This document shows, in pieces, positions 35,954-62,343 of a stretch of 64,000 nt of DNA; positions within the stretch are counted from its first letter, which is position 1, and the number at the start of each line of letters is the position of its first letter. The notes beneath the pieces are model-generated. The model worked only from the letters and a program-made list of their open reading frames with translations. It was not told the origin of the DNA and made no database searches. The stretch is from Brucella pseudintermedia (lineage in GTDB: Bacteria; Pseudomonadota; Alphaproteobacteria; Rhizobiales; Rhizobiaceae): the NCBI RefSeq assembly GCF_008932435.1, contig NZ_WBWE01000001.1, positions 62,001 through 126,000 of the forward strand. Direction: 5' to 3'. Position numbers and translations under genes: made by a program.

Positions 35954-36121
35954 TTTTCCTCAACCCGCCAGCACCGGAAACCGATAACCGGCTTTTCCTC
36001 TCACCGCAGGTTGAAGAGATAGTGGCGTGAATCGCCCTTCGTCCTGACGGCAACATTTCGACAATGTCACCGCCACGGACAGCCGCGCCTGGACACACCC
36101 CGTATCCAAGCATGGGTGACC

Positions 36122-36320
36122 GGATACGGCAGGTCTCCTGACTTCCGGGTCATCGCCTTCCCTCCGCCTTCCCGATCGCACGTTTGCTTTCAGTGGCTTT
36201 CACCGCTTGCGCGGCTGTGGAGGATAGCTCTCCGGTTACAGTTGCGGGGGCAGTCGCGGCATCAGCCAGAATGGCTTCACCGTGTTCCCTTTTCATCCGC
36301 CTGAACAGCGGAACCGTTTC
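36122..36320 (-). ncRNA. Cobalamin (B12) riboswitch
   Basis: On the minus strand the leader of btuB contains the B12 box AAGTCAGGAGACCTGCC (36144-36128), the conserved CTGCCCCCGCAACTGTAA (36253-36236) and GATGAAAAGGGAAC near 36297-36284, in the right order. Bound cobalamin should repress the btuBFCD genes. The start codon lies about 170 bp downstream. Confidence 0.95.
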
Positions 36321-36329
36321 CTGATGATT

Positions 36330-36358
36330 GCGATAGCAACATGGTTAAGGATTCGCAA
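36330..36358 (-). promoter_or_regulatory. Promoter for the B12 riboswitch and btuB
   Basis: TTGCGA (36358-36353) and TATCGC (36335-36330) are spaced 17 bp. The predicted start, near 36323, falls just before the first conserved riboswitch bases. Confidence 0.5.
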
Positions 36359-58330: not shown

Positions 58331-60154
58331 TCAGACGAGCGCGCGGCCCTTGGCATCGATGGCATTGGCAACGGCTTCATCTGTCGCCTCATCCGGCAAC
58401 AGCATTTCATTATGCGCCTTGCCCGAGGGGATCATCGGGAAGCAGTTGGCGAGGTTTGCCACCCGGCAGTCGAAGATGACCGGCTTGTCGATATCGATCA
58501 TTTCCTGAATGGCGGCGTCGAGATCGCCCGGCTTTTCGCAGCGGATACCATGCGCGCCATAGGCTTCGGCCAGCTTCACGAAATCCGGCATCGCCTCCGT
58601 ATAGGAGTGCGACAGACGGTTGCCATGCAGAAGCTGCTGCCACTGGCGCACCATGCCCATATACTGGTTGTTCAGGATGAAGATTTTGATCGGCGCATTA
58701 TGCTGGATCGCTGCCGACATTTCCTGGATGCACATCTGGATCGAGGCATCGCCCGCAATATCGATAACCAGTGCATCAGGGTGCGCGATCTGCACGCCGA
58801 GCGCCGCCGGCAGACCATAACCCATGGTGCCAAGGCCGCCGGAAGTCAGCCAGCGGTTCGGTTCCTCGAAACCATAGAACTGCGCAGCCCACATCTGGTG
58901 CTGCCCAACTTCAGTGGTGATGTAGGTCTTGCGATCCTTGGTCAGTTCATAGAGCCGCTGAATTGCATATTGCGGCATGATGACTTCCCGGTTCGGCGCG
59001 TAGGCCAGCGAATTGCGGGCACGCCAGCGGTTGATCTGTTCCCACCAGGCAGCGATCGCCTGCTTTTCCGGCTTCCTCTCAGAAGCGCGAAACTGACGAA
59101 CGATGTCTTCCAGAACGTGGGCAACGTCGCCGATGATCGGCACGTCCACGCGAACATTCTTGTTGATCGAAGATGGATCGATATCGATGTGGATCTTCTT
59201 CGAGTTGGGCGAAAATGCATTCAGACGCCCGGTGATACGGTCGTCGAAACGAGCGCCGACGCACAGCATGACATCACAGTCGTGCATAGTCATGTTGGCT
59301 TCGTAGGTTCCGTGCATACCGAGCATTCCGAGCCAGTTCTTGCCGGAAGCCGGATAAGCGCCCAGCCCCATGAGCGTCGACGTGATCGGAAAATTGCTGA
59401 TCTCAACCAGCTCGCGCAGCAGACGGGAAGCTGCCGGGCCGGAATTGATCACGCCGCCGCCGGAATAGATGACGGGATTCTTGGCATTGACGAGCAGACG
59501 TACGGCATCCGAAATTGCCTGCGCATTGCCGTCGAGAACCGGACGGTAGCTGGTGCGCGGCGCGGTTTCCGGCGGCGTATAAATGCCCTTGGCAAACTGG
59601 ATATCCTTCGGAATGTCGACCACGACGGGACCGGGACGACCGGTGGAAGCGACATGAAAGGCTTCGTGCAGGATGCGCGCCAGATCGTTGACGTCTTTTA
59701 CGAGCCAATTGTGCTTTGTGCAGGGGCGCGTGATGCCGATCGTATCGCATTCCTGAAATGCATCGGAGCCGATCAGGGTCGTCGGAACCTGACCCGAAAT
59801 GCAAACCAAAGGAATGGAATCCATCAGGGCATCCTGAAGCGGCGTGACCGCATTGGTCGCACCTGGACCGGACGTGACAAGCATCACCCCAACTTTGCCG
59901 GTCGAACGCGCATAGCCTTCCGCCGCATGCCCGGCGCCCTGTTCGTGACGCACCAGAATGTGCTGAACCTTGTCCTGCTGGAAGAGCTCGTCATAGATCG
60001 GCAGCACAGCCCCGCCGGGGTAACCGAAGATGCTCTCTACGCCCTGATCGATGAGGGCCTGAATGACCATTTCCGCGCCTGTCATTTCGCGCGGATTGCT
60101 TGCTTCCTGCGTTTCTGCGGCGTTTGCATCCGCCTCACGTTTACCTGCAGTCAT
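58331..60154 (-). CDS. ilvI: Acetolactate synthase large (catalytic) subunit
   Basis: A 607-residue thiamine diphosphate enzyme, with FAD and Mg2+, that makes acetolactate or acetohydroxybutyrate. GYPGGAVLPIYDEL and RHEQGAGHAAEGYAR (catalytic Glu) lie near residues 44-80, the FAD domain in the middle, and the ThDP motif DIAGDASIQM ... ILNNQYMG near 470-505. The N-terminal 25 residues are unconserved; ATG 60154 has GGGAAGAGAACA upstream. An attenuator leader precedes it. Confidence 0.97.
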   Translation of the reverse strand: MTAGKREADANAAETQEASNPREMTGAEMVIQALIDQGVESIFGYPGGAVLPIYDELFQQDKVQHILVRHEQGAGHAAEGYARSTGKVGVMLVTSGPGATNAVTPLQDALMDSIPLVCISGQVPTTLIGSDAFQECDTIGITRPCTKHNWLVKDVNDLARILHEAFHVASTGRPGPVVVDIPKDIQFAKGIYTPPETAPRTSYRPVLDGNAQAISDAVRLLVNAKNPVIYSGGGVINSGPAASRLLRELVEISNFPITSTLMGLGAYPASGKNWLGMLGMHGTYEANMTMHDCDVMLCVGARFDDRITGRLNAFSPNSKKIHIDIDPSSINKNVRVDVPIIGDVAHVLEDIVRQFRASERKPEKQAIAAWWEQINRWRARNSLAYAPNREVIMPQYAIQRLYELTKDRKTYITTEVGQHQMWAAQFYGFEEPNRWLTSGGLGTMGYGLPAALGVQIAHPDALVIDIAGDASIQMCIQEMSAAIQHNAPIKIFILNNQYMGMVRQWQQLLHGNRLSHSYTEAMPDFVKLAEAYGAHGIRCEKPGDLDAAIQEMIDIDKPVIFDCRVANLANCFPMIPSGKAHNEMLLPDEATDEAVANAIDAKGRALV

Positions 60155-60195
60155 TGTTCTCTTCCCGTCTGCATTTCATTTCTGATCTGGATAAT

Positions 60196-60273
60196 AAAAA
60201 AGGCCCCCGAGGGAGCCTGTCTTTCGCGCATGGGAGCTTTCGCCGGATGGTTACACCATCCTGCCCATGCGCG
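60196..60273 (-). terminator. Transcription attenuator of ilvI-ilvH
   Basis: After the leader peptide codons, CGCGCATGGG (60273-60264) pairs with CCCATGCGCG (60234-60225), with an inner GGATGG/CCATCC stem. The terminator hairpin AGGCTCCC/GGGGGCCT (60218-60201) ends in TTTTTT, 40 bp before ilvI. The order is that of a classical amino acid attenuator; I could not resolve a clear antiterminator. Confidence 0.8.
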
Positions 60274-60304
60274 CCCGTACCACAAGAATAATAATCGTGT
60301 TCAT
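60251..60304 (-). CDS. Branched-chain leader peptide of the ilvI operon
   Basis: ATG 60304 to TAA 60251 encodes MNTIIILVVRARMGRMV. Six consecutive codons are for Ile, Ile, Ile, Leu, Val, Val, the products of the pathway the operon feeds. A ribosome stalled there would cover the first arm of the downstream hairpin. No Shine-Dalgarno sequence is visible; the predicted promoter would start transcription within a few bases of the ATG. Confidence 0.85.
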   Translation of the reverse strand: MNTIIILVVRARMGRMV

Positions 60305-60312
60305 GGTGGCGG

Positions 60313-60341
60313 ACACTAATAGCCGGATTCGTCGTCGTCAA
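60313..60341 (-). promoter_or_regulatory. Promoter of the ilv leader
   Basis: TTGACG (60341-60336) and TAGTGT (60318-60313) are 17 bp apart on the minus strand. The expected start point, about 60306-60304, is at or two bases before the leader ATG, which implies a leaderless or almost leaderless mRNA. Confidence 0.55.
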
Positions 60342-60465
60342 CGCATAAATACGTCGCCTGCGTTATTTTCTTAAGATTCACCCGCCTCGACGATAACTTT
60401 ATTTCAACCGAAGACACTTACCCTGACGCAAAACCTCCTGTTGAAAGTTGGGGCGAGCGGGCAGC

Positions 60466-62343
60466 ATGAGCGAAATCGGCGGCAATTCCGGCGCACGAGA
60501 ACACGGCGAATACGTGCAGCGCAATCGCACGGAAGGTTACGTCATCCAGTGCGATGGCGAAGGCGCCATCGTATCGGCATTGTCGGGTCCTTCATCCGCC
60601 GCATCCGACGATTATTGGGCCGTAGGCCAGCTGATATCCATTCGAGCTGGTGACAATCGCGTCGTCGGCCTCATTCGCAACGTGCTTGTGCCGGGCGATG
60701 TGTGGATACGCGGAGGCGACAATACGCTCCATGTTCATGTCGAGTTTTTGGGCGAGGTTCGCGTACAGCCGAATGGGCAAACCACATTCAATGGCGGCAT
60801 TTCCCAATTCCCCCATCCGGGCGCTATTGCTCACCGTATCCGCGCCACCGATCTCGCTGCCATTTATGCTCAGACCGGACAAAGCAGCGTTTCCATCGGC
60901 ACGTTGACACAGGACGCAACTGTTCCGGCTCATATTTCGGTCGACGACCTTATTTCCCGGCATTTTGCTATCGTCGGCACTACGGGCGTCGGCAAATCGA
61001 GCGCGGTCATGCTGCTTCTGCGCCGCATCGTTGCCCAAAAACCCAATCTGCGAGTACTCATCCTTGACCCGCACAATGAATTCGCGAGTGCATTTCCGGA
61101 CCTGGCAGTGGCCGTCGATCAGACGAATATCGAGCTGCCATTCTGGATGCTGCGGCTTGATGAATTTGCCGACGTAATCTTTCGCGGACGCGCGCCGGAC
61201 CCGATGGAGCTCGACATATTGCGTGATCTGGTCCAGCTTGCGCGGGAAAAAATGCAAGGTGCCGAGTCCTCGTCCGCGAAAACCTTGCGGCGACAATTGG
61301 CAGACCGGCAGAGCGTCAGCGCCGACACACCTGTAGCCTATCGCCTCCCCGATCTGATCGCGCTCATCGACCAGCGTATGGGACTTCTCGACAGCAAGGC
61401 GGAACGACCCTATCTGCGTAGCCTCAAGGCTCGCCTGGAATCGATTTCCGCCGATCCTCGGTTCCGCTTCATGTTTGCCGTGACCGGCGGACCTGAGACA
61501 ATGCGGCAAGCTATCGGCCGTATTTTTCGCATTCCGCAAAACGGAAGGCCCATCTGCACATTCCAGCTTGCGGGATTGCCATCCGAAGTTGTCAACGCCG
61601 TCGCGTCGGTTTTGTGCCGACTGGCCTTCGATATCGCTCTTTCAAGCGAAGGCAGCCTGCAAACGCTGGTGATATGCGAAGAAGCCCACCGCTATATTCC
61701 AGCCGACCGCGACGCTGGTTTCTGGCCGACGCGGCAGGCTATAGCCCGAATTGCCAAGGAAGGCCGGAAATACGGTTCCTATCTGGGCGTCATCAGCCAG
61801 CGTCCCGGTGAGCTGGACGCGACAATCCTGTCGCAGTGCAATTCCATTTTCGCAATGCGCCTTGGCAATGAACGCGACCAGGAAATCATCAAGGGCGCCA
61901 TTCGCGGCGGCGCGCAAAGCATGGCGGGCTTTCTTTCATCAATCGCCAATCGCGAGGCCATCGCCTTTGGCGAAGCCTTCTCGACGCCCATGCGATTGAC
62001 ATTTGAGACCATCCCATCCCATCAGCTTCCGGGACGCAGCAAAAGCGAAAGCGCGCTTTCCGGCTGGCGCAGCGATGGCAAGATATCGCTTGACCAGATC
62101 GTCGAAAAGCTGCGCGCCTTTGAAAGCAGCTCCCAGACGGACCCGGCGGACCGGTTCCCAGACGAGGACAGCCTTTGGGGCAACCCGGTTTCCACCACTC
62201 ATCGTGACCATGCATCGATTGATGATGAATTTCACCGGCCATCGCCTTTGAAGCCGCAAACTCCACTCAGCCTCGACACGAAGCAGAGCATTGAGAAGAT
62301 GGGTGAACTGGTGCGCAGTTTCCGCAAGGACCGTGAGCGCTAG
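60466..62343 (+). CDS. HerA-type (DUF87) hexameric ATPase / translocase
   Basis: A 625-residue protein from ATG 60466 with an N-terminal beta-barrel (HAS-barrel like) and an ATPase domain. Walker A is GTTGVGKSS (171-179), LILDPHNEF follows, and LVICEEAHRYIP near residue 400 is Walker B with its Glu. GRKYGSYLGVISQRPGELD and RLGNERDQEII complete the FtsK/HerA-like core. HerA proteins translocate on DNA, often with a NurA nuclease; no nuclease gene adjoins it. The gene converges on the GGDEF gene with a gap of 8 bp. Confidence 0.87.
   Translation: MSEIGGNSGAREHGEYVQRNRTEGYVIQCDGEGAIVSALSGPSSAASDDYWAVGQLISIRAGDNRVVGLIRNVLVPGDVWIRGGDNTLHVHVEFLGEVRVQPNGQTTFNGGISQFPHPGAIAHRIRATDLAAIYAQTGQSSVSIGTLTQDATVPAHISVDDLISRHFAIVGTTGVGKSSAVMLLLRRIVAQKPNLRVLILDPHNEFASAFPDLAVAVDQTNIELPFWMLRLDEFADVIFRGRAPDPMELDILRDLVQLAREKMQGAESSSAKTLRRQLADRQSVSADTPVAYRLPDLIALIDQRMGLLDSKAERPYLRSLKARLESISADPRFRFMFAVTGGPETMRQAIGRIFRIPQNGRPICTFQLAGLPSEVVNAVASVLCRLAFDIALSSEGSLQTLVICEEAHRYIPADRDAGFWPTRQAIARIAKEGRKYGSYLGVISQRPGELDATILSQCNSIFAMRLGNERDQEIIKGAIRGGAQSMAGFLSSIANREAIAFGEAFSTPMRLTFETIPSHQLPGRSKSESALSGWRSDGKISLDQIVEKLRAFESSSQTDPADRFPDEDSLWGNPVSTTHRDHASIDDEFHRPSPLKPQTPLSLDTKQSIEKMGELVRSFRKDRER

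What the first reader, a model, noticed from the sequence alone, without database searches (positions are those of the whole stretch)
60196..60341. Near-leaderless Ile/Leu/Val leader peptide and attenuator before ilvI
A 17-residue frame (MNTIIILVVRARMGRMV) with six consecutive branched-chain codons is followed by a pause hairpin and a terminator with TTTTTT. There is no Shine-Dalgarno sequence, and TTGACG-17-TAGTGT predicts transcription starting at or within two bases of the ATG. I recall that the trp leader of Sinorhizobium starts at its ATG and that its attenuator RNA and peptide act in trans. The ilv leader here could release a similar sRNA and peptide.
Basis: partly seen in the sequence, partly recalled or inferred. 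Interest (0 to 1): 0.78.

Follow-up and report, generated by a model that had tools for sequence, protein, structure and literature searches.

The report
Leaderless amino-acid attenuator before ilvI
A short RNA that appears to begin right at the start codon of a tiny isoleucine/leucine/valine-rich peptide sits before the gene for the first enzyme making these amino acids; it is very probably a conserved amino-acid-sensing switch of a known kind, and it matches a small-RNA family that the database lists without that job.

Summary
On the minus strand TTGACG-17-TAGTGT precedes a 17-codon frame (MNTIIILVVRARMGRMV), a 49-nt hairpin, a terminator with TTTTTT, then ilvI and ilvN. The element is Rfam RF02502, "Rhizobiales sRNA Atu_C8" (116.5 bits, cut-off 50); that model begins at the G of the leader AUG in six of six relatives aligned. 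381 of 394 genomes of the family carry it. Among 81 ilvI leaders (window plus its 80 nearest hits) the predicted +1 lies at the A of ATG or one base before it in 79, none has a clear Shine-Dalgarno, and the Ile/Leu/Val run ends exactly 5 nt before the hairpin arm in 75. Of 76 more distant leaders 39 do have a Shine-Dalgarno. Covariation supports the hairpin. Ribosome-mediated attenuation of ilvI is therefore very likely; it had already been proposed for S. meliloti ilvIH. Two points are unexpected. I found no classical antiterminator, although the same test gives strong complements in five control leaders. And of 154 loci fetched by the RNA family, 24 have the element before a Bcr/CflA-like transporter instead of ilvI. 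Action in trans remains untested.

The parts
60336..60341 (-). -35 element TTGACG
   Evidence: -35-like hexamer starting 36-38 nt before ATG in 79 of 81 leaders
60313..60318 (-). -10-like element TAGTGT, 17-nt spacer
   Evidence: T at -14 in 77 of 81 and A at -13 in 67 of 81 leaders (where two leaders, L044 and L071, still had an upstream ATG)
60251..60304 (-). leader ORF MNTIIILVVRARMGRMV, TAA; predicted +1 at or one base before the A of ATG
60278..60295 (-). six Ile/Leu/Val control codons ATT ATT ATT CTT GTG GTA
60264..60273 (-). outer stem, 5' arm CGCGCATGGG (coding)
   Evidence: covariation
60245..60261 (-). inner hairpin with the stop codon at its loop
   Evidence: fold; by eye a similar layout in most of the 26 folds printed; not part of the RNAalifold consensus
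60225..60234 (-). outer stem, 3' arm CCCATGCGCG
   Evidence: covariation
60196..60218 (-). intrinsic terminator AGGCTCCCTCGGGGGCC and TTTTTT
60185..60305 (-). Rfam RF02502 Atu_C8 match
   Evidence: 116.5 bits, cut-off 50
58331..60154 (-). ilvI, acetolactate synthase large subunit (presumed regulated gene)
   Evidence: NF006581, 1237 bits
57740..58312 (-). ilvN/ilvH, acetolactate synthase small subunit
   Evidence: NF008864, 226.1 bits

Best explanation
This is a ribosome-dependent transcription attenuator of the ilvI-ilvN operon. RNA polymerase starts at, or one base before, the A of the leader ATG, so a ribosome loads on a leaderless RNA. It reads Ile-Ile-Ile-Leu-Val-Val, a run that ends a few nt before the foot of a large hairpin that holds the stop codon. 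When charged tRNAs are plentiful the ribosome runs on into the hairpin, the terminator forms and an RNA of about 110 nt (the Atu_C8 RNA) is released. When charging is low the ribosome stops on the run, its front edge on the GCGC foot of the hairpin, and more polymerases read through into ilvI. Shown by sequence and comparison: the parts, their register, the covarying hairpin, the conserved codons, the promoter spacing, and identity with an annotated sRNA family. Inferred: start point, translation, and the direction of the response. Not explained: how a halted ribosome weakens the terminator, because no antiterminator partner was found.
For: Family match. 381 of 394 genomes of the family and 161 of 297 of the order match at E<=0.001 (374 and 49 over the cut-off), 0 of 14 control genomes. 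Leader ORF with Ile/Leu/Val core in 81 of 81 ilvI loci (the motif was part of the search, and the 80 loci are the best of 597 relatives). +1 at -1 or 0 relative to the A of ATG in 79 of 81, assuming 7 bases between -10 and +1; anti-Shine-Dalgarno pairing <=-5 kcal/mol in 0 of 81. Core ends 5 nt before the GCGC arm in 75 of 81, and in 63 of 76 more distant leaders. Codon choice differs from window ORFs: Leu CTG 0 of 102 against 38%; of 173 Val codons GTA 34% against 8% and GTC 3% against 36%. Outer stem kept through changes on both sides in 6 of 9 pairs among 45 leaders. Prior listing of an ilvIH cis-regulatory element in S. meliloti.
Against: No upstream complement to the terminator's 5' arm beyond chance: median duplex -6.2 kcal/mol, median z +0.74, z<-1.5 in 0 of 80; E. 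coli thrL, leuL, trpL, hisL and the genome's own trpL give -10.9 to -16.1 (z<-1.5 in 3 of these 5). No better-than-chance decoy for the 3' arm, and no overlap at the hairpin foot. In nascent-RNA folds the E. coli controls show the arm paired upstream at the first control codon (0.53-0.81) and hardly at the stop (0-0.11); the 80 leaders show no such contrast (medians 0.155 first, 0.41 last, 0.41 stop). That measure also fails for the own trpL (0.68, 0.63, 0.61), so it is weak. In S. coelicolor, replacing ilvB leader codons had no effect on regulation (stated in PMC1262725, passages). No expression data were seen for this organism.
Confidence: 0.82

Rival explanations
1. A dual-function attenuator: besides cis control, the released leaderless RNA and/or its peptide act in trans, as rnTrpL and peTrpL do in Sinorhizobium meliloti.
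For: Same layout as rnTrpL, a small leaderless RNA starting at the AUG of its leader ORF (PMC10117765 and PMC7298713, passages); typed as an sRNA in Rfam; in 381 of 394 genomes of the family. The same genome also has a trp leader, MNISRNIVINGWWWAR, without a visible ribosome site.
Against: No target was sought or found. The peptide outside the Ile/Leu/Val run is not conserved across families; its constancy within Rhizobiaceae can be explained by the coding stem arm (inference). The main text of the S. meliloti small-protein study holds no 'ilv'.
Confidence: 0.2
2. Atu_C8 is mainly an independent sRNA gene that happens to lie before ilvI.
For: Rfam type is 'Gene; sRNA'; no antiterminator was found.
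Against: Linkage: of 154 loci fetched by the RNA family, 130 hold ilvI or a paralogue and the other 24 hold one transporter family. Ile/Leu/Val codons and their distance to the hairpin are conserved.
Confidence: 0.06
3. A hairpin-as-antiterminator design like that proposed for ilvBNC of Corynebacterium glutamicum: the large hairpin itself opposes the terminator at a shared foot and forms when the ribosome halts early in the run.
For: Same order of parts, a leader treated as leaderless with its start one nt from the ATG, and Leu CUU and Val GUA control codons (PMC11857589, passages). The foot of the hairpin lies only a few nt from the terminator.
Against: Pairing between the pre-stem stretch and the terminator arm is weaker than with partners exchanged between sequences (300 of 300 permutations at least as strong; 148 of 153 leaders usable). 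A halt on the last core codon would cover the foot.
Confidence: 0.25
4. The true start lies upstream and the leader has an untranslated region.
For: More distant leaders often have a ribosome site (anti-SD <=-5 in 39 of 76); the plain consensus scan missed the promoter.
Against: Fixed promoter-ATG spacing and no ribosome site in the clade; the Atu_C8 model starts at the AUG, although model ends are curated, not measured.
Confidence: 0.08

Closest known systems
Rfam RF02502 Atu_C8 (Rhizobiales sRNA; original report Wilms et al. 2012, recalled, not held)
   Same: The window element is a full-length member (model positions 1-122, 116.5 bits).
   Different: The Rfam entry says sRNA; here it is read as the 5' leader and attenuator of ilvI with an ORF starting at its 5' end.
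ilvIH cis-regulatory element of S. meliloti (PMC2573895, Table 3, citing Vitreschak et al. 2004)
   Same: Same gene and order of bacteria; the work cited there is on attenuation.
   Different: The passages seen name the element only; no structure, start point or link to an sRNA family was seen.
trp attenuator of Sinorhizobium, rnTrpL/peTrpL
   Same: Leaderless RNA starting at AUG, leader peptide, terminated short RNA (passages).
   Different: Branched-chain codons instead of Trp; the own-genome trpL has a strong antiterminator complement (-15.9 kcal/mol), the ilvI leader of the window does not (-5.1).
ilvBNC attenuator of Corynebacterium glutamicum and ilvB1NC of Mycobacterium tuberculosis (PMC11857589, PMC13236596, passages)
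   Same: Leader ORF with branched-chain codons including GUA, hairpins then terminator; a short leader transcript (about 120 nt, M. tuberculosis); start one nt from ATG (C. glutamicum).
   Different: Other phylum; there an antiterminator exclusive with the terminator is proposed, which was not detected here.
ilvL of Caulobacter (PMC4117421, passages)
   Same: Alphaproteobacterial ilv leader with tandem Ile and Val codons and a terminator.
   Different: RF02502 matched none of the 14 control genomes, among which Caulobacter vibrioides is named.

Membership tests
Rfam RF02502 Atu_C8 | covariance-model score above the gathering cut-off over the full model | tested here: met
   116.5 bits against 50, positions 1-122 of 122
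Ribosome-dependent transcription attenuator (trp type) | short leader ORF with codons of the end product before the biosynthetic gene | tested here: met
Ribosome-dependent transcription attenuator (trp type) | intrinsic terminator between leader ORF and structural gene | tested here: met
   a T run 25-110 nt after the stop in 80 of 81 leaders
Ribosome-dependent transcription attenuator (trp type) | antiterminator that sequesters a terminator arm when the ribosome stalls | tested here: not met
   z<-1.5 in 0 of 80 against 3 of 5 controls; energies -6.2 (median) against -10.9 to -16.1; a thermodynamic test only. Among more distant leaders 4 of 74 pass it and 7 of 74 show a stall/stop contrast
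Ribosome-dependent transcription attenuator (trp type) | read-through rises on starvation for the encoded amino acids | not testable with these tools
   needs an expression assay
Dual-function leaderless attenuator sRNA (rnTrpL type) | RNA starts at the AUG of the leader ORF | tested here: inconclusive
   predicted in 79 of 81, and the Rfam model starts at the G of AUG in six of six relatives; no 5' end was measured
Dual-function leaderless attenuator sRNA (rnTrpL type) | RNA or peptide acts on other transcripts | not tested
   no target search was made
C. glutamicum ilvBNC type ('fast') attenuator | antiterminator and terminator share bases at their feet | tested here: not met
   extension pairing weaker than with permuted partners (the earlier one search is confounded by its stem definition)

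The most novel reading that the evidence does not exclude
Atu_C8 is a portable branched-chain amino acid sensor of a design without a separate antiterminator, in which the halted ribosome acts by opening the GCGC foot of a hairpin next to the terminator. In two lineages this module stands in front of a Bcr/CflA-like transporter, placing a putative efflux or uptake protein under control of Val/Leu/Ile tRNA charging, while its leaderless product also circulates as an sRNA.
Probability: 0.25. Interest if true: 0.68.

Novelty: new member of a known kind. Interest (0 to 1): 0.45.

Why it matters
It gives a likely cis function to an sRNA family found in 381 of 394 genomes of the family, so expression data on that 'sRNA' may be read as read-outs of branched-chain amino acid status. 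It also offers a second leaderless attenuator, beside trpL, to test whether attenuator RNAs commonly act in trans. The absence of a detectable antiterminator and the copies before a transporter make two direct tests possible: how a halted ribosome relieves this terminator, and what the transporter carries.

Tried and rejected
Antiterminator searches: folds and nascent-RNA pairing with ribosome masks (one search was mis-indexed and replaced), arm-complement tests and foot-extension tests (confounded, replaced by 69): none gave a partner in the 80 leaders. Terminator probability had medians of about 0.98 in every ribosome state, but minima of 0.24 (stop), 0.30 (none), 0.58 (last) and 0.71 (first codon), so single leaders vary. 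In one search wider footprints gave a stall/stop contrast above 0.3 in 7 (15 nt) and 8 (18 nt) of 80, none at 9 or 12 nt. (energy gap with the terminator forbidden) was invalid because the constraint also blocked alternative pairs; not used. The weak RF00489 match at 60190-60222 (20.2 bits, cut-off 50) covers the terminator alone and was rejected. The 635-aa plus-strand ORF 58412-60319 lies antisense to ilvI and was set aside as spurious.

Rows dropped or chosen: L097 (its contig lacks the stretch between stop codon and T run) left 80 of 81 leaders in the structure tests. For L044 and L071 an internal ATG replaced a longer upstream one by my choice. In one search L025, L026, L028 and L115 were left out; 44 of the 90 references printed there, plus the window, went into alignment A1. 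The 76 distant leaders are 75 from other families of the order plus L111; their ORF was the best-scoring Ile/Leu/Val frame, so their cores are partly by construction, and the picks for L136 and L145 look spurious. Of the 18 two-copy genomes of the family a further copy was fetched for 12. The 80 named ilvI loci are not in the count of 154, since they were fetched by ilvI itself.

Literature: searches (9 of 10). RF02502 was found only in a benchmark list in PMC5913331; the other hit is a rice paper. PMC3738593 (A. tumefaciens ncRNA survey) and PMC10117765 hold no 'ilv' in the main text, PMC3927594 neither 'ilv' nor 'attenuat'. That no paper links Atu_C8 to ilvI holds only for these searches; Wilms 2012 was not held, and Vitreschak 2004 was seen only as a reference.

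Full report
What is there. On the minus strand the window holds, in order, TTGACG, 17 nt, TAGTGT, eight bases, ATG, a 17-codon frame MNTIIILVVRARMGRMV, a 49-nt hairpin that contains the stop codon, a terminator and six T. 41 bases after the T run comes ilvI, then the small subunit gene. The stretch from ATG to the last T is 109 nt.

What it belongs to. Rfam gives RF02502, Atu_C8, a Rhizobiales sRNA, over its whole length at 116.5 bits. Model ends are curated boundaries, not measured ends. The Rfam name is all that I have for its detection; Wilms et al. 2012 is recalled and was not held.

Spread. The own genome has one copy. In the family 381 of 394 genomes match, 374 over the cut-off. Of the 13 without a match, ten are 2.0 Mb or smaller and the other three are 77-81% complete. 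In the order 161 of 297 match, 49 over the cut-off; 136 do not match at that sensitivity; 0 of 14 control genomes match. The nearest named ilvI loci are Ochrobactrum and Brucella species, so the window comes from that neighbourhood.

Conservation of the peptide and start. In the window and 80 ilvI loci (the best of 597 relatives) an ATG frame with the Ile/Leu/Val core followed by R[MV]G was found in 81 of 81; the motif was part of the search, so misses, not hits, would have been informative. A -35/-10 pair was found in 80 of 81 (not in L108), placing +1 at -1 (68) or 0 (11) relative to the A of ATG if 7 bases follow the -10, with one outlier at -24. No leader pairs with the anti-Shine-Dalgarno at -5 kcal/mol or better. 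C is found at -1 and at -2 in 73 of 81 each. In 76 more distant leaders the picture changes: 39 have a Shine-Dalgarno at that threshold and only 14 have TTGA[CG] near the expected place. Leaderless start thus looks like a property of certain clades, not of the element as such.

Signs of ribosome sensing. The last core codon ends 5 nt before the GCGC arm in 75 of 81 and in 63 of 76 distant leaders; the stop codon starts 19 nt after the arm begins in 75 of 81. A ribosome with its A site on the last core codon would reach 12 nt from that codon's first base, that is onto the GCGC foot (inference; footprint assumed). Codon choice is far from that of the window's ORFs: no CTG among 102 Leu codons (38% in the ORFs), and GTA or GTG in 88% of 173 Val codons against 39%. 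These counts are not independent, since the sequences are related, and the background is one genome. The outer stem is kept through changes on both sides in 6 of 9 pairs among 45 leaders, with up to 22 such sequences at one pair; three of the nine pairs are broken or gapped in 2-4 sequences.

The switch. Classical attenuators hide a terminator arm in an antiterminator. The complement test gives duplex energies of -16.1, -11.8, -10.9 and -11.4 for E. coli thrL, leuL, trpL and hisL and -15.9 for the trp leader of this genome (z -3.4, -1.3, -2.3, -0.7, -1.9). The 80 ilvI leaders give a median of -6.2 with z +0.74 and none below -1.5; of 74 more distant leaders 4 fall below -1.5. Decoys of the 3' arm are no better than chance. 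A shared foot, as proposed for C. glutamicum ilvBNC (PMC11857589, passages), is not supported either. Full-length folds with ribosome masks keep the terminator in every state at the median (0.98), but so do the E. coli controls, so that says little. Nascent-RNA pairing separates stall from stop in the four E. coli controls and not in the 80 leaders, but it also fails for the own trp leader. I therefore say that it works like an attenuator, with the relief step unexplained, and do not file it as a trp-type attenuator in the strict sense.

What is known. Valverde et al. list an 'ilvIH cis regulatory' element in S. meliloti and cite Vitreschak et al. 2004 (PMC2573895, passages). Attenuation of the Caulobacter ilv operon by a leader is described (PMC4117421, passages). 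rnTrpL of S. meliloti, leaderless, acts in trans, and its peptide too (PMC7298713 and PMC10117765, passages). ilvB1NC of M. tuberculosis releases an abundant leader transcript of about 120 nt (PMC13236596, passages). The kind is known; the link to Atu_C8 was not found in the searches listed.

Copies elsewhere. Of 154 loci fetched by the RNA family across the order (L116 and L117 hold two leaders each), 130 hold ilvI or a paralogue and 24 hold a transporter downstream of the leader instead. The 24 are 5 genomes of one genus of the window's family (G187, G281, G584, G623, G654; their ilvI loci are closest to named Rhizobium loci, in one case to an unnamed Rhizobiales isolate followed by Rhizobium lusitanum) and 19 genomes of one other family, 18 of them among its 20 two-copy genomes. 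One of the three proteins scanned passes the Bcr/CflA efflux cut-off (211.0 against 200.9); the other two score below it (173.4; 156.9 for a partial reading). The leaders keep a Val-rich or Val/Leu/Ile run and the hairpin in those printed; in the second family a Val-Val-Val run is common, and in five of the 24 my simple ORF rule found no leader frame, of which L232-L234 show it. What is carried, and in which direction, cannot be told from sequence.

Verdict. The finding is real and its main reading, a near-leaderless branched-chain attenuator before ilvI, is well supported. It is a member of a known kind and of a named RNA family. Trans action is open.

Noticed in passing
L013, L014, L112, L113, L200-L206, L208-L210, L212, L216, L218-L221, L223, L232-L234: 24 loci in which the RF02502 leader precedes a Bcr/CflA-like MFS transporter instead of ilvI, in two lineages.
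   Followed up: partly
L116 and L117: Two ilvI paralogues in tandem, their leaders about 2.7 kb apart, each with its own leader peptide and terminator.
   Followed up: partly
L111, L235, L237, L238, L239: Leader copy before an ilvI paralogue (best piece 67-74% identical); in L238 and L239 the match is split in two pieces with a gap between.
   Followed up: no
L230 (G000:C11, upstream of trpE(G)): The own genome's trp leader MNISRNIVINGWWWAR also lacks a visible ribosome site and has CTAACA 8 nt before ATG, so it may be leaderless too; it has a strong antiterminator complement.
   Followed up: partly
window 36111-36333, minus strand: Cobalamin riboswitch RF00174, 119.5 bits.
   Followed up: no
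window 60448-62343, plus strand: 631-aa ATPase-like ORF (HerA/FtsK-like by eye, recalled) divergent from the ilvI leader, about 107 bases from its -35.
   Followed up: no
L098:6437-6565: Match to another alphaproteobacterial sRNA family, ar35 (RF02346, 67.3 bits), about 2.2 kb downstream of ilvI.
   Followed up: no
L097: Leader with intact ORF and T run but without the stretch between them; deletion or assembly fault in a metagenome-derived contig.
   Followed up: no
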